From contig CAIMUP010000054.1 of assembly GCA_903844645.1 (NCBI GenBank), positions 1-64,000 on the forward strand: a stretch of DNA of 64,000 nt. Direction: 5' to 3'. Shown here in pieces: positions 1 to 62,850 of the stretch. The translations under genes were made by a program, and so were the position numbers. Each line of letters opens with the position of its first letter. The stretch's first letter is position 1. The DNA comes from an uncultured Bacteroidota bacterium. Lineage in GTDB: Bacteria; Bacteroidota; Bacteroidia; AKYH767-A; JABDAW01. Under the pieces are notes generated by a model that was not told where the DNA came from, made no database searches, and saw only the letters and a list, made by a program, of their open reading frames with translations.

Positions 1-326
1 AGGATTACTATTTATGCCTGTAGGATTACTTTTTATGCCTGTAGGATTACTATTTATGCCTGTAGGATTACTTTTTATGCCTGTAGGATTACTTTTTATG
101 CCTGTAGGATTACTTTTTATGCCTGTAGGATTACTTTTTATGCCTGCAGGATTACTTTTTATGCCTGTAGGATTACTTTTTATGCCTGCAGGATTACTTT
201 TTATGCCTGTAGGATTACTATTTATGCCTGTAGGATTACTTTTTATGCCTGTAGGATTACTATTTATGCCTGTAGGATTACTTTTTATGCCTCGAGGATT
301 ACTTTTTATGCCTCGAGGATTACTTT
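1..326. repeat. Tandem array, 21-bp unit, ~15.5 copies (cut by window start)
   Basis: The unit contains the core AGGATTACTTTTTATGCC and recurs every 21 bp without an indel. Variation is limited to single substitutions: CTGTAGG, CTGCAGG and, in the last two copies, CTCGAGG. The array begins before the window. Because 21 is a multiple of three, the stretch reads as an open frame of a seven-residue repeat, but there is no sign that it is a gene. It lies beyond the 3' end of the leftward gene that ends at 631. Confidence 0.95.
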
Positions 327-351
327 TACTATAGTAATGGAACCATTAGTC

Positions 352-3436: not shown

Positions 3437-3826
3437 CATCTTATCCCAACCGAAGCCTCTACTCGGCAGATGCAAGCCTTTACTCGGGGGATATGACATT
3501 TTACTCGGCGGATATGACATTTTACTCGGCGGATATGACATTTTACTCGGGGGATATGACCTTTTACTGGGGGGATCTAAGACAAATCCGCGTGAATTTG
3601 TCTTACATCCCCCCAGTAAAATGTCATATCCCCCCAGTTTCGGCTTACATCCCGCCAGTAAAATGTTACATCCCGCCAGACCGAAGCCTGCACTCGCCAG
3701 ATGCAAGACTTTACTCGCCAGATCTAACACTATTTCACGCGAAATTGTCTTCGGTCTGGCGAGTAAAGTCTTACATCTGGCGAGTAAAATGTTCGGTCTG
3801 GCGAGTACAGGCTTCGGGTAGGATAA
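3437..3826. repeat. Tandem/inverted array of 21-bp units in alternating orientation
   Basis: Units carry TACTCGGCGGATATGACAT or its variants. Six direct units start at 3460, 3481, 3502, 3523, 3544 and 3565, each exactly 21 bp apart. Four inverted units follow (CCAGT at 3613, 3634, 3655, 3676), then two direct (ACTCG at 3692, 3713), then three inverted (CTGGCG at 3756, 3777, 3798). Two orientation switches have related palindromic centres, CCGCGTGAA near 3587 and TTCACGCGAA near 3734, which are inverse to each other. The outer ends also mirror (CTTATCCCAACCGAAGCCT against AGGCTTCGGGTAGGATAA). The array sits between the divergent promoters of the T9SS gene and atpD. Confidence 0.93.
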
Positions 3827-3951
3827 AAACCACCCTTTCCAAGAAAAAACGATGCCTCATTCCTCCTTTTTAAGAGTCCATTTGGGATGCGTGGAGCCAA
3901 TTGTTAATAAATAAATCTGAAGAACTATTCTTTTATTTCCATAAATTATAT

Positions 3952-7016: not shown

Positions 7017-7138
7017 TAAAATTATTAATGAAGATAATACCGAGATTAATGCCATTAATAATGCCTACATTATTCCCTAAAACGGGACTAAAAATCGTCC
7101 TATTTCCAACATTAATTTCCACATTTCCATTAAAACCT

Positions 7139-7288
7139 TCCATGCGAACGTCAAAATCTTCCATGCGAACGTCAAAAGTTTCCATGCGAATGTCAAAAGT
7201 TTCCATGCGAACATCAAAGATTTCCATGCGAACATCAAAGATTTCCATGCGAACACCAAGGATTTCCATGCGAGGGTCGAAAAATGCC
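7139..7288. repeat. Tandem array, 21-bp unit, 7 copies (TTTCCATGCGAAC family)
   Basis: GCGA occurs at 7144, 7165, 7186, 7207, 7228, 7249 and 7270, exactly 21 bp apart. Copies differ by a few substitutions (CGAACGTC, CGAATGTC, CGAACATC, CGAACACC, CGAGGGTC). A second, unrelated 21-bp array begins about 10 bp further on. Confidence 0.95.
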
Positions 7289-7298
7289 GCCAATCACT

Positions 7299-7445
7299 GA
7301 TAAAAATGTGGCTGGCATCGATAAAAATGTGGCTGGGATTGATAAAAACATGGCTGGGATTGATAAAAAGGTGGCTATCTTCGATAAAAAGGTGGCTGGG
7401 ATTGATAAAAAGGTGGCTGGGATTAATGGGAACGTGGCGATTATC
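7299..7445. repeat. Tandem array, 21-bp unit, 7 copies (GATAAAAATGTGGCTGG family)
   Basis: Units start at 7299, 7320, 7341, 7362, 7383, 7404 and, degenerate, 7425; the spacing is 21 bp throughout. The sequence is unrelated to the array just to the left. Both lie between the divergent promoters of the MazG-like gene and the first signal peptidase gene. The stretch 7446-7712 after it holds one -7 box and otherwise nothing I recognise. Confidence 0.95.
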
Positions 7446-7712: not shown

Positions 7713-9179
7713 ATGAAAAAAATTCTTGCGAGATTAAACGACCGGCAGCGGGCTTGGTTTTGGGCATTTACGGTAGGTAATGCTTTATTTTTGGGCTTCA
7801 TTTTGCTATTTGCCGGAGCCGATTTGGTGAATGCGGCATCGCTTTGGGTAATCACCCAATTCCTTGTCGTGGCGTACTATATGAGCATCCAGAATGACAA
7901 AAAACGTGGTGCCGCTCGCGAGTGGTTTGATGCCATTGTGTTCGCCGTTGTGGCAGCTACTATTATCCGTGCATTTTTTCTGGAAGCGTTCACGATTCCT
8001 ACGTCTTCGGAAGAGAAAACGCTGATGATTGGCGACTTTCTTTTCGTGAGTAAATCGAGCTATGGGGCGCGGCTTCCGATGACTCCCATTGCCTTTCCTT
8101 TTGCTCATCATACAATGCCTTTGGTTGGCGGAAAAGCGTATGTCGAATGGCCTCGGATTCCTTATTATCGCTTGCCTGGCTTTGGAAAAATTCAGAATTA
8201 CGATGCCGTTGTGTTTAACTATCCTGATGGTGATACGGTGGCTCTTAATGCGCAGGATCAGAGCTATTATCAGATGTGTCGGGACTATGGTCGTGAGACG
8301 GTTTATCGTGATGATCAGATGAATCCGCAGACAGGTGTGAGCTATTTTGGTAAAGTTGTGGCACGACCCGTTGATAAACGCGAAAACTATATTAAACGCT
8401 GCGTAGCGATTGCCGGCGATACGCTTTTTATCAATCATAAAGATGTATTTATTAATGGCAAACCCGCGCTGAATACAGGGACTATCCAATACAATTATCT
8501 TGTTCGCACGGACGGCAGCGGAATCAACCAAAATATCCATGAAAAGTTTGATATTACAGAGCCAGTGAGGCAAACCCAGAACGGAGATTACGAACTGTTT
8601 CTTCCGAATAACAAGGTGGATGAATTTAAGCAGCTAAGCATGGTAAAATCTATGAAGATTTTGGTTGAAGACAGCGGGATTTATTCTGCACGCATCTTTC
8701 CGCACAGTAAAAATTACGCATGGAATGTCGATAACTTCGGTCCGCTTGTAATCCCTAAAGAAGGCACGACTGTAAGCATTGATACGGCTACTATTGTTCT
8801 CTATGAACGTATCATCGGTGTGTATGAACACAATGATTTGAAGGTGCATGATGGCAAGGTTTTCATTAACGGTAAAGAAAGTCACGCCTATACTTTTAAG
8901 ATGAACTATTTCTGGATGATGGGTGATAATAGGCATAACTCGGCTGACTCTCGCTACTGGGGTTTTGTGCCGCAGGATCATATTGTTGGTAAGGCGGTTT
9001 TCGTATGGATGTCGTTGAAAGAAAATACTGATATAAGCCACAAGTTCCGTTGGAATCGTTTCTTTACATTTGTGCATCCTTATGGTTTATCCCGCTCTTA
9101 TCTGATTCCTTTTCTGATTATCATTGCATCCGTTTGGGTGGGGCTTTTTCTCTACGGCAGAAGAAAGAAGCATTCCTAA
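7713..9179 (+). CDS. lepB: Signal peptidase I, long form with Met-to-Glu change beside the catalytic Ser
   Basis: Inner-membrane serine protease (S26) that cleaves signal peptides of exported proteins; 488 residues. Two N-terminal membrane segments (about residues 17-55) and one near 74-90 precede the active site. The catalytic Ser is Ser99 in FTIPTSSEEKTLMIGDF and the general-base Lys is Lys228 in YIKRCVAIAGD. Box E, MMGDNRHNSADSRYWG, is intact, and a C-terminal membrane segment lies near residue 465. Family members almost always have Met after the catalytic Ser; here it is Glu. Compared with the tandem copy downstream there are about 40 extra residues before the Lys motif. It probably cleaves a distinct substrate set or is less active. 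Confidence 0.93.
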   Translation: MKKILARLNDRQRAWFWAFTVGNALFLGFILLFAGADLVNAASLWVITQFLVVAYYMSIQNDKKRGAAREWFDAIVFAVVAATIIRAFFLEAFTIPTSSEEKTLMIGDFLFVSKSSYGARLPMTPIAFPFAHHTMPLVGGKAYVEWPRIPYYRLPGFGKIQNYDAVVFNYPDGDTVALNAQDQSYYQMCRDYGRETVYRDDQMNPQTGVSYFGKVVARPVDKRENYIKRCVAIAGDTLFINHKDVFINGKPALNTGTIQYNYLVRTDGSGINQNIHEKFDITEPVRQTQNGDYELFLPNNKVDEFKQLSMVKSMKILVEDSGIYSARIFPHSKNYAWNVDNFGPLVIPKEGTTVSIDTATIVLYERIIGVYEHNDLKVHDGKVFINGKESHAYTFKMNYFWMMGDNRHNSADSRYWGFVPQDHIVGKAVFVWMSLKENTDISHKFRWNRFFTFVHPYGLSRSYLIPFLIIIASVWVGLFLYGRRKKHS

Positions 9180-9281: not shown

Positions 9282-10529
9282 ATGAACCATCGTTTTAAAA
9301 GATTAAACAGAAGACAGAAGCGACGTTTTATAATACTTACACTCCTCAATGTATCCTTCCTTTTCATCCTTTTATTCGGTGCCAAAGCCACAGTGATTAC
9401 CGGATTTACCATCATTCTTATCAACCAATTCTTTCTAACATTATATCATCTTACATTAAACCCAAATGGTGCCAAAACCATTATGGGAGAATGGTTTCAC
9501 GCTATACTCTTCGCCTTGTTGGCAGCTATTTTTCTCCGTTCATTCGTTGTCGAAGCCTTCACAATACCTTCCTCGTCTATGGAGAAAACATTACTCATCG
9601 GAGACTTCATCTTCGTCAGCAAAATCAACTACGGTCCTCGCATTCCGATGACTCCCCTTGCCCTCCCTTTCACACATCATTCCCTGCCATATAAAGGTTG
9701 GAAGGCTTACATAGAATGGCTTAAAATTCCTTACTATCGTTTGCCCGGGTTATGGCATATTCGCAACAACGATGTGGTCGTATTCAACTATCCGATGGAG
9801 GATTATCGCCCTGTAGATAAACGCGAACATTATATCAAGCGTTGTGTCGCTATTCCTGGTGATGAAATGATGATTATTCATGGTACAATTTCCATTAACA
9901 ACCGTCGCCTACCCCTGCCACATCACGCTTTACAGATGTATCATGCCAAGACAGATGATATAGCATTCTTCGATGATAGCATACGCCATGTAGAGGCGTA
10001 TGCACCACAATTAATCTCTAATCAGGGTGATTATCTCGTGCCGATTTCTATGGATGGATTAAAGCAGATTAATACTCTTAAAAACGTAACACATATCGAA
10101 CGACTAACCGATGAAGAAGTCAGCCATTATTATCAAACCTCCCTCTTTCCGTATGATAAGTTTCACAATTATCAGATAGATAATTTCGGTCCTATAAAGA
10201 TACCGCGACGAGGCGATACCGTTTATCTTAATCATAGTAATATCGCACTATACAAACGTATCATCGAGGTTTACGAGAACCATAAACTCGAAGAAAAAGA
10301 TGATAAAATCTATATAGACAATGTCGAAACTTCGCGGTATATCTTCGCGATGGACTACTACTTTATGATGGGCGACAATCGCTATAATTCCGAGGACTCG
10401 CGCTTCTGGGGTTTCGTTCCCGAAGACCATATTGTAGGCAAAGCAAGCATGATATGGATGTCGTGGGATAAAGAAGCCGCGGGGTTAGCCAAGATTCGCT
10501 GGCGACGACTATTTCGCTTCATTAATTAG
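9282..10529 (+). CDS. lepB: Signal peptidase I, second tandem copy
   Basis: A 415-residue S26 peptidase about 100 bp downstream of its paralogue, in the same direction. It has two N-terminal membrane segments, the canonical Ser99 in FTIPSSSMEKTLLIGDF, Lys186 in YIKRCVAIPGD, and MMGDNRYNSEDSRFWG. The C-terminus stops at the last catalytic strand, without the extra membrane segment of the first copy. With the usual Ser-Met pair kept, this is the more likely housekeeping enzyme. The intergenic 9180-9281 has a TATTTTCG sequence at 9210 that could be a weak -7 box. The organism exports many large T9SS proteins, which first need signal peptidase. Confidence 0.93.
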   Translation: MNHRFKRLNRRQKRRFIILTLLNVSFLFILLFGAKATVITGFTIILINQFFLTLYHLTLNPNGAKTIMGEWFHAILFALLAAIFLRSFVVEAFTIPSSSMEKTLLIGDFIFVSKINYGPRIPMTPLALPFTHHSLPYKGWKAYIEWLKIPYYRLPGLWHIRNNDVVVFNYPMEDYRPVDKREHYIKRCVAIPGDEMMIIHGTISINNRRLPLPHHALQMYHAKTDDIAFFDDSIRHVEAYAPQLISNQGDYLVPISMDGLKQINTLKNVTHIERLTDEEVSHYYQTSLFPYDKFHNYQIDNFGPIKIPRRGDTVYLNHSNIALYKRIIEVYENHKLEEKDDKIYIDNVETSRYIFAMDYYFMMGDNRYNSEDSRFWGFVPEDHIVGKASMIWMSWDKEAAGLAKIRWRRLFRFIN

Positions 10530-12243: not shown

Positions 12244-12432
12244 AAGCGACGATTGCAAAAAAGTATGCGAATATCGCAATCTGCAAGCGTGGAATGCAAA
12301 AAAGTATGCGGATATTCCAAAAATGTATGCGAGGATTGCAATTAAGTGAGCGACGAATGCAATTAGGTAAGCGACGAATGCAAATTGCAAGCGAGTATTG
12401 CAATTAGGTAAGCGACGAATGCAATTATGTAC
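12244..12432. repeat. Tandem array, 21-bp unit with two 20-bp members, 9 copies
   Basis: Units begin with GCG at 12246, 12267, 12287, 12308, 12329, 12350, 12371, 12391 and 12412. Spacings are 21, 20, 21, 21, 21, 21, 20, 21. The core is GCGACGAATGCAATTAGGTA with considerable divergence between copies. Both 20-bp units end in TGCAA where the others have one more base. It lies between the divergent T9SS and helicase genes. Confidence 0.9.
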
Positions 12433-17575: not shown

Positions 17576-17856
17576 GATAAAGTGATGTTGTAATAGTTCC
17601 GTGTGATGTTGTAATAGTTCCGTGTGATGTTGTAATAGTTCCGTGTGATGTTGTAATAGTTCCGTGTAATGTTGTAATAGTTCTGTGTGATGTTGTAATA
17701 GTTCCGTGTAATGTTGTAATAGTTCTGTGTGATGTTGTAATAGTTCTGTGTGATGTTGTAATAGTACTGTGTGATGTTGTAATAGTACTGTGTGATGTTG
17801 TAATAGTACTGTGTGATGTTGTAATAGTTCCGTGTGATGTTGTAATAGTTCCCCAT
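17576..17856. repeat. Tandem array, 21-bp unit, 13 copies (GATGTTGTAATAGTTCCG family)
   Basis: Thirteen units start every 21 bp from 17582. Variation is almost confined to two sites: GATG/AATG and TTCCG/TTCTG/TACTG. Three consecutive TACTG units suggest recent local duplication. It lies in a convergent gap, together with an IS982 element and a second short array. Confidence 0.96.
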
Positions 17857-21332: not shown

Positions 21333-21451
21333 CAAAATAAATTGGAAAGATACAGCATTTTCTCTAAACTTAAATGCCATGAAATTATTGTTTAATGCCT
21401 CCGTCATCAGGAATCTCAACCATAATTCCCCAAATTTTTGCGGAATTCCTC

Positions 21452-21640
21452 GGGAGCCTGGCTCATGCTCCCATATACTCTGGTGATGCTCCCGGGAGCC
21501 TGGCTCATGCTCCCATATACTTTGGCGATGCTCCCGGGAGCCTGGCTCATGCTCCCGTATATTTTGGCGAAATTCCCGGGAGCCTGGCTCATGCTCCCGT
21601 ATATTTTGGCGATGCTCCCGGGAGCATGGGTTGTGCTCCC
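21452..21640. repeat. Tandem array, 42-bp unit (2 x 21), 4.5 copies, hairpin-forming
   Basis: GGGAGC starts at 21452, 21494, 21536, 21578 and 21620, exactly 42 bp apart. In each unit the first 21 bp are bounded by GGGAGC and GCTCCC and contain the dyad GAGCCTGGCTC, so each can fold. The second 21 bp (ATATACTTTGGCGATGCTCCC-type) end in another GCTCCC, and adjoining units meet at CCCGGG. The unit thus looks like a dimer of two 21-bp halves. It lies between the 3' end of lon and the promoter of the next gene. Confidence 0.95.
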
Positions 21641-21691
21641 GACCATTTTCGGTATATTTTAAGGCTTTTATCAGCGAATGAAAGGAATCGC

Positions 21692-24990: not shown

Positions 24991-25268
24991 GAGCCAAACG
25001 TATTCAAGTTTAAGCCAAACGTATTCAAGTTTGAGCCAAACGTATTCAAGTTTGAGCCAAACGTATTCAAGTTTGCGCCAAACGTATTCAAGTTTAAGCC
25101 AAACGTATTCAAGTTTGAGCCAAACGTATTCAAGTTTAAGCCAAACGTATTCAAGTTTGAGCCAAACGTATTCAAGTTTAAGCCAAACGTGTTCAAGTTT
25201 GAGCCAAACGTATTCAAGTTTGAGCCAAACGTATTCAAGTTTGAGCCAAACGTATTCAAGTTTACGCC
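24991..25268. repeat. Tandem array, 21-bp unit, 13 copies (GAGCCAAACGTATTCAAG family)
   Basis: Thirteen units start every 21 bp from 24991, without indels. The only common variation is GAGCC, AAGCC or GCGCC, with one GTGTTC for GTATTC. The unit contains the inverted pair GTTTG/CAAAC around a 3-bp centre when read across unit borders. Unlike most arrays here, it lies between a gene start (24946) and the nearest candidate promoter (25320), so it may be in a leader. Confidence 0.96.
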
Positions 25269-25878: not shown

Positions 25879-25968
25879 TTAATAACTCAAGTTCGGTCCC
25901 AGCCATTTCTCAATGGTTTCGATGCTCATGCCTTTGCGCTTGGCATAGTCTTCGGCTTGCTTATCCAT
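25879..25968 (-). CDS. 29-residue peptide resembling the C-terminus of methionine synthase MetH
   Basis: The ATG at 25966-25968 directly follows the TAG of the GlmU-like gene, giving MDKQAEDYAKRKGMSIETIE followed by KWLGPNLSY and a TAA. From memory, the end of cobalamin-dependent MetH has this pattern (YA-RKGMS-EE-EKWL-PNL-Y). It is either a gene remnant or a small gene that keeps only the terminal segment of the MetH activation domain. Translational coupling to the upstream gene looks possible because the stop and start abut. Confidence 0.55.
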   Translation of the reverse strand: MDKQAEDYAKRKGMSIETIEKWLGPNLSY

Positions 25969-27769: not shown

Positions 27770-27904
27770 TTGGAATCCGACTTCGATAAGTTGGATTCGG
27801 ACTTCGATAAGATGGATTCCGACTTCGATAAGATGGGTTCCGACTTCGATATGATGGAATCGGACTTCGATAAGATGGATTCCGACTTCGATAAATTGAG
27901 ACTA
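27770..27904. repeat. Tandem array, 21-bp unit, 6 copies (GACTTCGATAAGATGGAT family)
   Basis: GACTTCG occurs at 27779, 27800, 27821, 27842, 27863 and 27884, exactly 21 bp apart. Units differ at TTCC/TTCG and TTGG/ATGG. A weaker seventh copy (GACTAAACTTCG) follows. It lies between the rpmE2 promoter and the 3' end of the WecA-like gene. Confidence 0.94.
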
Positions 27905-27969
27905 AACTTCGTGGGTGAATGATATGACAGGCATCTTTAAAGTTTAAGGTCGGAGTCTATGCCTCAACT

Positions 27970-31520: not shown

Positions 31521-31770
31521 GATAACTTCCTTAAGCTTCCGCGAGCCCTCGCCGAACCATAAGGAAGTTTCCTTACGCATCCGCGAGCGTTCGCCGAACC
31601 ATCAGGAAGTTTCCTTACGCACCTGCGAACCCTCGCCGAACCATCAGGAAGTTTCCTTACGCACCTGCGAACCCTCGCCGAAGCTTAAGGAAGTTTCCTT
31701 ACGCATCTGCGAGGGTTCGCGGAGGCATAAGGAAGTTATCTTTGGCATCCGCGAACATTTTTGAATCAAA
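31521..31770. repeat. Tandem array, 42-bp unit (2 x 21), 6 copies
   Basis: GGAAGTTTCC or a variant starts at 31521 (degenerate), 31563, 31605, 31647, 31689 and 31731, each 42 bp apart. The core has the dyad AAGGAAGTTTCCTT and a CGAACC-CTCGCC stretch. The last two copies are the most diverged. It lies between the divergent promoters of the hypothetical gene and the malic enzyme gene. Confidence 0.94.
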
Positions 31771-39489: not shown

Positions 39490-39728
39490 TTGTAATATAG
39501 GTATAATTTTTTTCGCTGATACCCATGTACGAAGTTGCAATGCTATAAATTTTTCCGCGAATACCTCTGCAACACCTTGCAACTATATAATTTTTTTCGC
39601 GGAGACCTCTGCAACACCTTGCAACGGTGTAAATTTTTTCTCGGATACCCCTGCAACACCTTGCAACAGTGTAAATTTTTTCGCTGATACCATTGTAGAA
39701 CCTTGCAGGGGTGTAATTTTTTTGGTTT
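39490..39728. repeat. Tandem array, 42-bp unit (2 x 21), 5 copies
   Basis: TTGCAA marks units at 39535, 39577, 39619, 39661 and 39703, exactly 42 bp apart. The unit contains the dyad TGCAACACCTTGCA and a T-rich run followed by CGCGGATACC-type sequence. A sixth, shifted partial copy may precede 39530. It shares a convergent gap with another unrelated 42-bp array. In 39253-39489 I see a possible very degenerate repeat (CATGGGAAC / CATGGAACG) but nothing firm. Confidence 0.94.
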
Positions 39729-39832
39729 ATGGGGCTATTTAAGGAATCATAGCCTTGATTTTTTATCAAATAATGGATGCAAAAAGAACTCCTACTACTA
39801 TTATTTAATGCAAAATATGATCTCGACTAAGC

Positions 39833-40092
39833 TTATCTTTTATGGAATTCCAAAGAATATTGGGTGGAACAAGACCTTCTTTTATGGAATTCCAATTCAT
39901 GCTGAATCGAACAAGCTTGTGCTTTATAGACTCTCAAATAATGCTCGATGGAATAAGATCATGCCTGATGGAATCTCAAATAATGCTCGGTGGAACAAGA
40001 TGATGTCTTATGGAAATCCAAAAAATGTTCGGTGGAACAAGATCATGTCTTATGCCATCAAAAAAAATAGTTGGTTGGAAAAGATCGTCTCT
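39833..40092. repeat. Tandem array, 42-bp unit (2 x 21), 6 copies
   Basis: The T of ATGG-like cores lies at 39843, 39885, 39927, 39969, 40011 and 40053, exactly 42 bp apart. Units carry TATGGAATTCCAAA-type and GGTGGAACAAGATCATG-type halves; the first has the palindrome TGGAATTCCA. Copies differ by 10-30%. It lies about 100 bp from the other 42-bp array and shares no sequence with it. Confidence 0.93.
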
Positions 40093-40167
40093 TTTTAATT
40101 TTATAAGAGAGTTATTGCACCCTTTTTTTGGGGATAAATTTAATAAAAAGATACTCCCCGATTTCTT

Positions 40168-44172: not shown

Positions 44173-44844
44173 TTACACAGTATCAAAAGGTTCTGGATCG
44201 CTTTCCGGTCCTTTGTCGCCACGATTGTTGATATACCAGGTAATGATATATCCTACTTTATGACGGTTTTCGGGAGCAACTAAAATATCAAAAGTGGTGC
44301 TTCCTACAGAAGAAATTTCTGTGAAAGTATTCCTGGCTGTGATTGGTAAATAATGATTAATGTAAACAATCGCTCTACCTATTTTCACTACATCATCCGG
44401 CAAATGGCGGTCATTGGTATGCCCTTCGGTAGGGTTGCCGACATAAATTTTATTATCACCCACAGCATATTTTATGCAAGAATTTACAGGAGCAATATTC
44501 GGCACTTCTACATAATGACGACGCTCTGCATCAACATGGATGAACAACCTCAAAATATCAGTGCCAGTCAATGTTATATCAGAATTCGCTTTTAATTGTT
44601 CTTTCAACGCTTCAATTTCCTTATTGAAAAGAGCAAATAAATCCTCCAAATCCTTTTGCGATTCGGCTTTCGTCAAGGGGTCTTTATACTTTAAATACAA
44701 AGGATCCCAAAGTAGCTTTTTGTTATTCAGCGAGAGCACTTTTGCAGGCGATACTTGCAGCCTGGTAGCATTGCCGGCAGCATTTATATGCCCTACGAAG
44801 ACGGTCATCTCTGCATCGAAGTTTGAAAATAATTGTGAAGCCAT
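44173..44844 (-). CDS. Hypothetical protein
   Basis: A 223-residue protein without signal peptide (MASQLFSNFDAEMTVFVGHI). I do not recognise it. A central helical, charged region (QKDLEDLFALFNKEIEALKE) is followed by strand-rich sequence (DAERRHYVEVPNIAPVNSC, GYIITWYINNRGDKGPES). It has its own terminator and a promoter with TTG 18 bp from TAGATTTG. In size, isolation and position next to an array it resembles the unrecognised genes at 24.3 and 54.4 kb; sequence similarity between the three is too weak to claim. Confidence 0.7.
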   Translation of the reverse strand: MASQLFSNFDAEMTVFVGHINAAGNATRLQVSPAKVLSLNNKKLLWDPLYLKYKDPLTKAESQKDLEDLFALFNKEIEALKEQLKANSDITLTGTDILRLFIHVDAERRHYVEVPNIAPVNSCIKYAVGDNKIYVGNPTEGHTNDRHLPDDVVKIGRAIVYINHYLPITARNTFTEISSVGSTTFDILVAPENRHKVGYIITWYINNRGDKGPESDPEPFDTV

Positions 44845-44893: not shown

Positions 44894-44922
44894 CAAATCT
44901 ATACAAAGTTTTGGAATATCAA
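44894..44922 (-). promoter_or_regulatory. Promoter, TTG-N18-TAGATTTG
   Basis: -7 box at 44894-44901 (minus strand) and TTG at 44920-44922, with a spacing of 18 bp, 50 bp before the start at 44844. It fits the Bacteroidota housekeeping promoter. Confidence 0.6.
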
Positions 44923-45086
44923 TACCTATTCTAAAATATTTTTGCATAAATCATGAATGAAATCCATGAATTATTTTTTATTTTCTATCTATTAAAATTA
45001 CAATATGCTGTATTACAATACGATACAAGGCGAATAATGCCTCATTCCGAACCCACAATATTCGGTTTTGTTGTCTTGAAGTGAAA

Positions 45087-45380
45087 ATGTAACACGACAC
45101 AGTTGGAATGTAACGCGTTACATTTTGAATCCGTTGCCACAGACTGTGGTTTCGTTCGAACGAAACCCCAGTATGATGCCATCGGTTTGAACATCCAGAC
45201 GAAGATCTTGAGTTTCGTTCGTCTGAAACCAAAAACCGTTCGAACGAAACCCGGCTTCGTTCGAACGAAACCAAAATGTAACACGACACACTTGGAATGT
45301 AGCACGTGTTTTTTCGAATCCGTTCCAACGAAAACCATTTTCATTCGAACAGAAACCATTTCCGTTCGAACAGAATCGGT
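45087..45380. repeat. Heterogeneous array of 14 units in strict 21-bp register
   Basis: Fourteen consecutive 21-bp blocks can be laid out from 45087 with no indel. Three kinds of unit alternate: ATGTAACACGACAC-type (units 1, 2, 10, 11), ATCCGTTGCC-type (3, 12), and TTCGTTCGAACGAAACC-type (4, 7, 8, 9, 13, 14), plus two unlike ones (5, 6). Units 1-4 recur as 10-13, a higher-order step of 189 bp (9 x 21). Perfect palindromes include ATGTAACGCGTTACAT at 45108-45123 and GGTTTCGTTCGAACGAAACC at 45148-45167. It lies between two divergent promoters. Confidence 0.93.
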
Positions 45381-45421
45381 TGTATGGTGAGCACTTTTTT
45401 TGGGATTGATGGAATTATCCA

Positions 45422-45429
45422 TACTTTTG
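45422..45429 (+). promoter_or_regulatory. Bacteroidota -7 box (TACTTTTG)
   Basis: Matches TAnnTTTG, followed by CTGCTTG, 45 bp before the T9SS protein start at 45474 and on the gene side of the array. Confidence 0.5.
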
Positions 45430-45473: not shown

Positions 45474-46991
45474 ATGAAAAAAATTACAATAGTGTTAATA
45501 GTGTTCGCCTTGATTGGTTCGAAAACTCAGGCACAAATCACCTTTGTGAAATTCTATAGTAATGCAAACGGCTATTCGGTTCAACAAACATCAGATGGAG
45601 GATACATTATGACAGGATCTAATTATTATAATTATACTCATATTAATTTAATAAAGACTAATGCTAATGGAGATACTTTATGGACAAGAACTTATGGTCA
45701 TGATCTTGGAGATTATGACATAGGATATTCGGTTCAACAAACTAATGATGGTGGATATATTATTGTAGCTACTATTGCTAGTTCCAATACCAGTCCAATT
45801 CATCTTTACTTAATCAAAACGAATTCCACTGGAGATACTTTATGGACAAAAACTTATGGAAGTACTGGTAACGACTACGGATATTCTGTCAAGCAAACCC
45901 TTGATAGTGGATTTATAATTGCAGGGGCAACAGATAGTCTTGGTGCAGGAGGTTATGATGCGTTTTTAATTAAAACAAATTCTATTGGAGATACTTTATG
46001 GACAAAAACTTATGGAGGCATTAATGATGATGAGGCAAAATCAGTTGAATTGACCACAGATGGCGGATATATTATTACGGGTTATACCAATAGTTTCGGT
46101 GCTGGTGACAATGATGTTTATTTAATTAAAACAGATTCAATTGGAGATACATTGTGGACAAAGACTTTTGGTAGTGTAAATTATGATATAGGATATTCAG
46201 TTAGGCAAACTTCTGATGGCGGTTTTATCCTTGTTGGTACTTATAATCTTGTATATTTTTGTCTAATTAAAACAAATTCAATAGGTGATACTTTATGGAC
46301 AAAGAATTATTATGCTAATGTCACTAACAATAATGCACAGGCCTATTCTGTTCAGCAGACTATAGATGGAGGATACATTTTTGCAGGAACTGCTGGAAAT
46401 TGGGTTGATGGTACATCGCAAAGTATGTTAATCAAAACAAATTCAATGGGTGATACTTTATGGACGAAATATTATAGTGATGGAATTAATTTCGTTCAAC
46501 AATCAACAGATGGAGGTTATATTGTTACAGGAGAATCGTCATTAATAAAGACTGATTCTACGGGGAATAGTGGTTGTAGGTGGTCCAACTCTTCGATTTC
46601 CCTTTATTCTTTTCCAACCCTAATTTCAAACACTTCAACTATTATTAAATCAGGTTGTATGGTTAGTAGTCCATCAGAACCAGTTGGAAGCGGAGGCACC
46701 TTTGTTATTACTAGATGCTTTAGTGCTGGTATCAATGAAATAAAAACTATTGAAGATATTTCCATCTTTCCTAATCCCGCCTCCAATCTCATCACCATCT
46801 CCCTCCCCGCTACTAACATAAAATCATGCAGCATTAATCTTTATGATATGTTGGGAGAAAAGATGCTGCCCTCCTACTCTACTTATTCCACCCAAACCAC
46901 CATTGACCTATCTTCCATTCCGCAAGGAATCTACTTCCTCGAAGTGATGATGGATAACGAGAAGGTGGTGAGGAAGGTGGTGAAGATGTAG
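45474..46991 (+). CDS. T9SS type A sorting domain protein, paralogue of the 10.6-kb gene
   Basis: A 505-residue secreted protein (signal MKKITIVLIVFALIGSKTQAQ). It has about seven repeats of ~55 residues with LIKTNSIGDTLWTKTYG and GYSVQQTSDGGYI cores, nearly identical in places to the protein encoded at 10608-12155. The C-terminus is a T9SS type A signal (ISIFPNPASNLITISL ... GIYFLEVMMDNEKVVRKVVK). The two genes are 33 kb apart in opposite orientation, so they arose by dispersed duplication. The stop is 7 bp from the converging barrel-protein gene and no terminator hairpin separates them. Confidence 0.92.
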   Translation: MKKITIVLIVFALIGSKTQAQITFVKFYSNANGYSVQQTSDGGYIMTGSNYYNYTHINLIKTNANGDTLWTRTYGHDLGDYDIGYSVQQTNDGGYIIVATIASSNTSPIHLYLIKTNSTGDTLWTKTYGSTGNDYGYSVKQTLDSGFIIAGATDSLGAGGYDAFLIKTNSIGDTLWTKTYGGINDDEAKSVELTTDGGYIITGYTNSFGAGDNDVYLIKTDSIGDTLWTKTFGSVNYDIGYSVRQTSDGGFILVGTYNLVYFCLIKTNSIGDTLWTKNYYANVTNNNAQAYSVQQTIDGGYIFAGTAGNWVDGTSQSMLIKTNSMGDTLWTKYYSDGINFVQQSTDGGYIVTGESSLIKTDSTGNSGCRWSNSSISLYSFPTLISNTSTIIKSGCMVSSPSEPVGSGGTFVITRCFSAGINEIKTIEDISIFPNPASNLITISLPATNIKSCSINLYDMLGEKMLPSYSTYSTQTTIDLSSIPQGIYFLEVMMDNEKVVRKVVKM

Positions 46992-53997: not shown

Positions 53998-54107
53998 GGA
54001 AAAAGGAAATGATTTCCGCAAGTGTCATTTTGAGAAAAGTTCCTTTTTATACTTGAAAATCGGGTTTTATAACGGGAAAAAGAGACAACACAGCACTTGG
54101 CAACCCG

Positions 54108-54290
54108 CTAACACGTGTGGGGGTGTTGGCAACACGTGTGGGGGTGTTGCTCACATGTGTGAGGGTGTTGCTCACACGTGTGGGGGTGTTGCTCACACGT
54201 GTGGGGGTGTTGCTCACACGTGTGGGGGTGTTGCTCACACGTGTGAGGGTGTTGCTAACACGTGTGAGGGTGTTGCTAACATTAGTGAGC
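54108..54290. repeat. Tandem array, 21-bp unit, 8 copies (ACACGTGTGGGGGTGTTGCT family)
   Basis: ACACGTGT, a perfect 8-bp palindrome, or the variant ACATGTGT recurs from 54111 every 21 bp, followed by GGGGGTGTTG or GAGGGTGTTG. The strongly G-rich strand is the plus strand. A decayed ninth unit (ACATTAGTGAG) ends the array. It lies between the zinc-ribbon gene's promoter and the terminator of the next leftward gene. Confidence 0.95.
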
Positions 54291-60477: not shown

Positions 60478-60628
60478 GCAACTGTAATATTGACTAATTA
60501 CACTAAAATACTGACTAAATACACTATAATACTGATTATTTACACTGTAATATTGACTAAAGACACTGTAATAATGAATAGCGCAACTGTAATAGAGAAT
60601 AACTACACTTTAATAGTGATTACAAAAA
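60478..60628. repeat. Tandem array, 21-bp unit, 7 copies (ACTGTAATATTGACTAA family)
   Basis: ACT marks units at 60481, 60502, 60523, 60544, 60565, 60586 and 60607, exactly 21 bp apart. Sequence identity between copies falls to about two thirds, yet there is no indel. The centre of several copies is TAATATT, a dyad. It lies between the XRE gene promoter and the 3' end of the MFS gene. Confidence 0.93.
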
Positions 60629-60674
60629 CTCTGTTTTAGCTTATCGCAATTGCATAATAAAATAGGATAAGAGC

Positions 60675-62697: not shown

Positions 62698-62850
62698 TCT
62701 AACAAGTTTTCAGACGTCTCTGGAAAGTTTTCAGACGCCTCTGAAAAGTTTTCAGACGCCTCTGGAAAGTTTTCAGACACCTCTGGAAAGTTTTCAGACA
62801 CCTCTGGAAAGTTTTTAGACACCTCTGGAAAGTCGTTAGAATGCTCTAAA
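62698..62850. repeat. Tandem array, 21-bp unit, 7 copies (TTTTCAGACGCCTCTGGAAA family)
   Basis: CAGAC marks units at 62711, 62732, 62753, 62774 and 62795, with decayed TAGAC at 62816 and TAGAA at 62837; all steps are 21 bp. Each unit holds a dyad, TTTCAGA-CGCC-TCTGGAAA, covering most of it. It lies upstream of the promoter at 63012. Confidence 0.95.

What the first reader, a model, noticed from the sequence alone, without database searches (positions are those of the whole stretch)
45087..45380. Fourteen unlike units held in perfect 21-bp register, with a 189-bp higher-order repeat
Adjacent units belong to three unrelated sequence types plus two orphans, yet there is no indel across 294 bp. 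Units 1-4 reappear in order as units 10-13. Slippage between identical copies cannot explain register between unlike units; selection on spacing can. Two units carry perfect palindromes of 16 and 20 bp.
Basis: seen in the sequence. Interest (0 to 1): 0.85.

Follow-up and report, generated by a model that had tools for sequence, protein, structure and literature searches.

The report
Intergenic DNA arrays with 21-bp step
This stretch is one of roughly a thousand gap-filling DNA arrays in a Bacteroidota genus that all repeat with exactly 21 letters (two turns of the helix) although their sequences are unrelated, and it is the one array family found here whose sequence and spacing were preserved between species, which suggests that something in these cells reads or builds DNA in 21-letter steps.

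Summary
The register is real: 45066-45380 is 15 contiguous 21-bp units, and the 189-bp repeat and the 16- and 20-bp palindromes are confirmed. The interpretation needs correcting. The units are not unrelated: a unit model built only from copies at other loci scores 14 of 15 of them above the 95% null, sharing a dyad core (GTTCGAAC, GTCGCGAC, AACGCGTT). The array belongs to a dispersed family (10 copies in 3 species of one genus, mostly 60-76% identical, same unit order), usually lying between promoters, with 61-103 substitutions and no indels in several pairs.

The larger finding is outside the coordinates. In this genus 140 of 156 tandem arrays have a period that is a multiple of 21, nearly each with its own sequence. 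They occupy 52 of 63 gaps over 350 bp, and orthologous gaps carry 21-bp arrays of unrelated sequence. Outside the genus such arrays are almost absent. Period is conserved and sequence is not.

Best reading: arrays grow in 21-bp steps and are kept in register, probably as same-face sites for a dimeric DNA-binding protein. The rival is a purely mutational 21-bp ratchet. Curvature, coding, CRISPR, RAYT and reverse-transcriptase explanations were tested and not supported; RNA, MITE and phage or plasmid explanations found little support.

The parts
45066..45380 (.). Focal array: 15 contiguous 21-bp units of one dyad-symmetric unit family (consensus about TTTCGTTCGAACGAAACCCAA), no indel
45087..45170 (.).
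45276..45359 (.). Units 10-13, second copy of the 189-bp higher-order repeat
45108..45123 (.). Perfect 16-bp palindrome ATGTAACGCGTTACAT
45148..45167 (.). Perfect 20-bp palindrome GGTTTCGTTCGAACGAAACC
45171..45212 (.). The two 'orphan' units, conserved in place and order in copies in G001 and G002
45400..45429 (+). Bacteroidetes-type promoter TTG-N19-TACTTTTG, 44 nt before the start of ORF 45474, outside the array
44894..44922 (-). Promoter TTG-N18-TAGATTTG for the leftward gene, 49 nt before its start
44173..44844 (-). 223-aa protein, no Pfam match; left neighbour; its orthologue in G002 also borders a copy of this array (L062)
45474..46991 (+). 505-aa secreted protein with type IX sorting domain (PF18962); right neighbour
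3437..3835 (.). Another 21-bp array of the class: forward and inverted blocks in one 21-bp register
1..327 (.). 21-bp array AGGATTACTTTTTATGCCTGT
7138..7438 (.). Two adjacent 21-bp arrays of different sequence
12252..12431 (.). 21-bp array; the orthologous gaps in G001 and G002 hold 21-bp arrays of unrelated sequence
17582..17852 (.). 21-bp array GTGATGTTGTAATAGTTCCGT
21451..21641 (.). 21/42-bp array; the orthologous gap in G001 holds an unrelated 21/42-bp array
24991..25263 (.). 21-bp array GAGCCAAACGTATTCAAGTTT
27771..27911 (.). 21-bp array; the orthologous gap in G001 holds an unrelated 21-bp array
31527..31756 (.). 42-bp array whose unit is a 21-mer plus its near reverse complement; the orthologous gaps in G001 and G002 hold unrelated 21-bp arrays
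39500..40093 (.). Two 42-bp-period arrays
54107..54281 (.). 21-bp array GCTCACACGTGTGGGGGTGTT
60480..60630 (.). 21-bp array, AT-rich
62704..62833 (.). 21-bp array AAGTTTTCAGACACCTCTGGA

Best explanation
The region is an old, diverged tandem array of one 21-bp dyad-symmetric unit. It is a member of a small dispersed family, which in turn belongs to a genus-wide class of roughly a thousand intergenic arrays whose period is fixed at 21 bp while the sequence is free. Shown: one unit family, fixed register, dyad symmetry, position outside the predicted transcribed parts and between promoters, few indels, genus restriction, and unrelated sequence at the same period in orthologous gaps. Inferred: arrays arise and change length by recombination or copying in steps of 21 bp, so register is inherited. 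Indels that break the register are removed because each unit is a site for a dimer of a DNA-binding protein (nucleoid-type or regulatory) and 21 bp, two helical turns, puts all dimers on one face so that they bind cooperatively between promoters. Most arrays turn over quickly. The focal family was kept, and its conserved unit order suggests positions with different roles.
For: A unit model from other loci fits 14 of 15 units, in one phase only. Ten copies in three species hold 12-19 units in order, with spacings of 21 except for single 20s in five copies, and with 61-103 substitutions but no indels in four well-separated pairs. Dyad pairs are kept with different bases across units, e.g. GTTCGAAC, GTCGCGAC, AACGCGTT; 1 of 2000 permutations reached the observed dyad pairing. 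Genome-wide, conserved columns of 27 of 79 arrays form a dyad (about 2.4 expected) and stems of 6 or more bp occur in 12 of 67 units against 1.8 in dinucleotide shuffles. -7 motifs are 3-fold denser between array and start codon than in or beyond arrays; full promoters or -7 motifs flank most focal copies, many of them 43-51 nt from starts. The period is a multiple of 21 in 91/96, 33/35 and 16/25 arrays of the three genomes, against 1/25 in the sister genus. Repeated 11-mers with unlike DNA between them are a multiple of 21 apart in 28-29% of pairs in G000 and G001, 12% in G002 and 5% elsewhere in the order.
Against: No binding protein was identified. Neighbouring genes of the ten copies share no function, and the distance from array to promoter varies, unlike a classical activator site. 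About two thirds of arrays show no clear dyad. In G001 the gap beside a homologue of the 223-aa gene holds a different 21-bp array, so the focal sequence is not needed there. Arrays are drawn from draft assemblies.
Confidence: 0.42

Rival explanations
1. Purely mutational ratchet: a genus-specific replication, repair or recombination process duplicates intergenic DNA in 21-bp steps (perhaps seeded by small hairpins). Register between diverged units is only inherited, and the arrays do nothing.
For: Period fixed but sequences unrelated, also in orthologous gaps; only 21, 42 and 63, no 31/32 or 52/53, which helical-phase selection alone would allow; arrays present in convergent as well as divergent gaps; hairpin excess in units; higher-order repeats and inverted blocks typical of recombination.
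Against: The focal family is conserved across species with 61-103 substitutions and no indels in several pairs; arrays avoid genes and promoter motifs lie between arrays and starts. No driver found: no reverse transcriptase in G000 and only weak or broken Y1 transposase matches in the genus.
Confidence: 0.36
2. The focal element is a structured RNA gene or leader; palindromic units form stems.
For: Both strands fold better than dinucleotide shuffles; consensus folds on both strands have pairs changed on both sides.
Against: No consistent strand bias, as expected of DNA palindromes; promoters point away from the array and lie outside it in most copies; no Rfam match at gathering score, weak matches far below cut-off.
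Confidence: 0.08
3. The focal element is a non-autonomous mobile element (MITE-like minisatellite, as BrickBuilt of Porphyromonas gingivalis) that spread array cassettes.
For: Ten dispersed copies with unrelated flanks; one recent 556-bp duplication at 94% identity (G001 C194/C9); some other units also recur at several loci (65 unique of 73).
Against: Similarity ends at the array edges with no terminal inverted repeats seen; only 2-4 copies per genome, all old except one pair; not found in plasmids or in the viral set.
Confidence: 0.1

Closest known systems
Tandem repeats of Borg elements (PMC9879509)
   Same: Many scattered arrays with units unique to each locus, fast turnover, often ending contigs
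   Different: Borg units vary in length, are perfect copies, A-rich and often in ORFs; here length is fixed at 21 bp, units are diverged, A = 28% and T = 28%, almost only intergenic, dyad-rich, in a bacterial chromosome
Heptamer repeats: TAACTGA arrays (PMC4679880) and cyanobacterial STRR repeats (the latter from memory)
   Same: Intergenic short-period direct repeats of uneven phylogenetic spread; 21 = 3 x 7, and the sister genus G003 has 7-bp arrays
   Different: There one sequence recurs at many loci; here the sequence differs at nearly every locus and only the period is shared. Units show no sequence identity at lag 7
BrickBuilt minisatellite-MITEs of Porphyromonas gingivalis (PMC4596501)
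   Same: Dispersed intergenic tandem arrays in Bacteroidota with 23-bp units and variable unit number, some near genes for type IX-secreted proteins
   Different: BrickBuilt has terminal inverted repeats and one conserved unit sequence; the focal family has no such ends and an ordered set of diverged units
Phased operator arrays bound by dimeric repressors or nucleoid proteins (general knowledge)
   Same: Dyad sites spaced by whole helical turns between promoters
   Different: No protein known here; units unusually degenerate; about a thousand loci with different sequences
REP/BIME elements with RAYT transposases (general knowledge)
   Same: Short palindromic intergenic units, alternating orientation
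   Different: No shared sequence and no intact RAYT gene found in G000

Membership tests
CRISPR array | Identical repeats separated by unique spacers of similar length | tested here: not met
   Contiguous 21-bp units without spacers
MITE / BrickBuilt-type element | Terminal inverted repeats at constant ends | tested here: not met
   Similarity between copies ends at array edges at varying places; no shared end sequence seen
MITE / BrickBuilt-type element | Target-site duplication / empty site | not tested
   No empty orthologous site compared
Borg-type tandem repeats | Perfect copies, A-rich units, variable unit length | tested here: not met
   Mismatch about 15%, A 0.277 / T 0.281, period fixed at 21
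Heptamer (STRR / TAACTGA) repeats | One heptamer sequence repeated at many loci | tested here: not met
   65 unique units among 73
REP/BIME with RAYT | Intact Y1 (RAYT) transposase in the genome | tested here: not met
   G000: one partial weak match; G001 and G002 weak or interrupted matches
Structured RNA (Rfam) | Match to a known family at gathering score | tested here: not met
Intrinsically curved (phased-bend) DNA | 10.5-bp phasing of bends within units | tested here: not met
   Predicted bend z = -0.48, AT-dinucleotide phasing z = 0.27 (wedge parameters entered from memory)
Coding heptad repeats (21 bp = 7 codons) | One reading frame open in all copies | tested here: not met
   Stops in every frame summed over ten copies (30, 12, 36, 17, 11, 30); -1 steps in five copies
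Phased operator array for a dimeric protein | Dyad-symmetric units at whole helical turns | tested here: met
Phased operator array for a dimeric protein | A protein that binds the units | not testable with these tools
   Needs binding experiments

The most novel reading that the evidence does not exclude
This bacterial genus has a chromosome-wide, sequence-independent system that builds or maintains intergenic DNA in steps of exactly 21 bp (two helical turns), a kind of bacterial intergenic chromatin or a length-measuring duplication machine, and the focal family is its one sequence-conserved branch.
Probability: 0.4. Interest if true: 0.92.

Novelty: new variant of a known kind. Interest (0 to 1): 0.78.

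Why it matters
Tandem repeats normally differ in unit length from locus to locus and share sequence if they share origin. Here it is the reverse: about a thousand loci (extrapolated) share only the length, and orthologous gaps rebuild it with other sequences. Either a mutational machine measures two helical turns, or selection on helical register acts on most long intergenic regions of a chromosome. Both can be tested directly, and either would bear on how bacterial intergenic DNA is organised. I found no published description in the papers searched, though that library is partial.

Tried and rejected
Curved DNA: no 10.5-bp phasing in units. Coding heptads: stops in all frames; the open-frame excess in units mostly vanishes with dinucleotide shuffles (4.52 vs 4.36, sd 0.09). 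Strand-specific RNA: no strand bias. Reverse transcriptase or RAYT driver: absent or degraded in G000. The same unit family in the sister genus G003: pattern hits exist but the 16 loci examined are not clustered or periodic. Phage or plasmid carriage: one chance site inside a phage gene, no plasmid match. AA/TT 7-bp periodicity within units: a signal (z 3.7) but no sequence identity at lag 7; left unexplained. A lenient-gap tandem-repeat census mixes in chance hits and was replaced by a stricter one.

Full report
OBSERVATION. The 14 units at 45087-45380 are in exact 21-bp register, and a further unit lies at 45066. Lag identities of 0.476 (21), 0.492 (105) and 0.638 (189) stand against 0.25 in dinucleotide shuffles. 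Units 1-4 recur as units 10-13 (60/84). The palindromes of 16 and 20 bp are perfect. This is far beyond chance.

ARE THE UNITS UNRELATED? No. The array has relatives elsewhere: in the same genome at contig 35, four places in G001 and four in G002 (same genus), and none in the sister genus or in 38 other genomes of the order. A 21-bp unit model from other loci alone scores 14 of the 15 window units above the 95th percentile of the null, and only in one phase. Units share a dyad around GTTCGAAC / GTCGCGAC / AACGCGTT. The two 'orphans' are in the same place in the copies elsewhere. So the array is a set of diverged relatives of one unit, and register could simply be inherited.

IS SPACING CONSTRAINED? 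Probably. Ten copies have spacing 21 throughout except one 20-bp step in each of five copies. Clean pairs differ by 61-103 substitutions and no indels; from general knowledge of bacterial mutation, roughly one indel per ten substitutions would be expected without constraint. Pairs with C142 and C88 align less cleanly, and the indel counts there are alignment-dependent. Similarity between copies stops at or near the array edges, except for one recent 556-bp duplication. The site itself is partly conserved: in G002 the orthologue of the left gene also borders a copy (L062), while in G001 a homologue of that gene (55% identical protein) borders a different 21/42-bp array.

SURROUNDINGS. The array lies between two divergent promoters of the Bacteroidetes type (TTG-N17-23-TAnnTTTG; motif from general knowledge), at 44894-44922 on the minus strand and 45400-45429 on the plus strand, 49 and 44 nt from the starts. 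Most other focal copies are placed likewise, with -7 motifs often 43-51 nt from starts; no such motif was found in the gaps of G001C166 and G002C88. Neighbours have no common function, and distances to promoters vary.

THE CLASS. The window holds more than a dozen other intergenic arrays of period 21, 42 or 63, with different units. In a 358-kb sample of the genome, 91 of 96 arrays have a period that is a multiple of 21, about 27 arrays per 100 kb, so of the order of a thousand in 3.8 Mb (extrapolation); 65 of 73 period-21 units are unique. They fill 52 of 63 gaps longer than 350 bp and none shorter than 250 bp. The same holds in G001 (33/35) and G002 (16/25), but not in the sister genus (1/25; 9 of 25 there are 7-bp arrays) or the rest of the order. 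Orthologous gaps hold 21-bp arrays whose units are no more alike than shuffled ones. Register extends across unlike DNA: exact 11-mer pairs separated by DNA without 21-bp identity are a multiple of 21 apart in 28-29% of cases in G000 and G001, 12% in G002 and 5% in other genera. Arrays are rich in inverted pairs (self reverse-complement score median 29, mirror control 16.5, non-array 12), and conserved columns form a dyad in 27 of 79 arrays (about 2.4 expected). Some arrays combine a constant palindrome with variable DNA, e.g. TGTG(A/T)CACA in L016. Promoter motifs lie between arrays and starts.

MECHANISM. Shown: fixed length, free sequence, genus restriction, dyads, position outside the predicted transcribed parts, indel scarcity in the focal family. 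Inferred: growth in 21-bp steps, purging of out-of-phase indels, and binding of a dimeric protein on one helical face. A purely mutational ratchet is nearly as likely for the class as a whole; the focal family is the part for which constraint is best supported. The bend prediction does not favour curvature. No reverse transcriptase or intact RAYT that could drive the process was found in G000.

COMPARISON. Nearest published: Borg tandem repeats (PMC9879509), TAACTGA heptamer arrays (PMC4679880), BrickBuilt minisatellite-MITEs of P. gingivalis (PMC4596501). None has a fixed length with free sequence. A term search of a partial library found no report of this.

CAVEATS. The gene calls used are simple ORF calls. 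Counts of pairs and units are not independent of shared descent.

Noticed in passing
L016:12770-12979 (G000 contig 30): 21-bp array with a constant palindrome TGTG(A/T)CACA every 21 bp and variable 12-bp stretches between, like a miniature repeat-spacer array.
   Followed up: partly
window 3437-3835 and 31521-31751: Arrays made of forward and inverted blocks (or a 42-bp unit of a 21-mer plus its near reverse complement) all in one 21-bp grid.
   Followed up: partly
G003 loci (L238-L257) and G002 loci: The sister genus has 7-bp arrays (9 of 25 arrays); 7 is a third of 21. G002 also has two 7-bp arrays.
   Followed up: no
starts or ends of L009, L011, L014, L015, L016, L018, L024: Many contigs begin or end inside a 21-bp array, so assembly breaks there and long arrays are under-represented.
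   Followed up: no
window 25880-25961: 82 bp identical (100%) to G001:C117:8235-8316 although most orthologous DNA is about 70-77% identical; looks like the end of a coding gene; no Rfam match.
   Followed up: partly
window 7713-9179 and 9282-10529: The two neighbouring ORFs share stretches of 70-80% DNA identity with each other's orthologues, which suggests a local gene duplication.
   Followed up: no
L058 and L051 (G001 contigs 194 and 9): Two focal-family copies 94% identical over 556 bp, including about 280 bp of flank: a recent segmental duplication.
   Followed up: partly
G000 period-21 units, e.g. in L009-L028: AA/TT steps inside 21-bp units show a 7-bp periodicity (z 3.7) without sequence identity at lag 7; unexplained.
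   Followed up: partly
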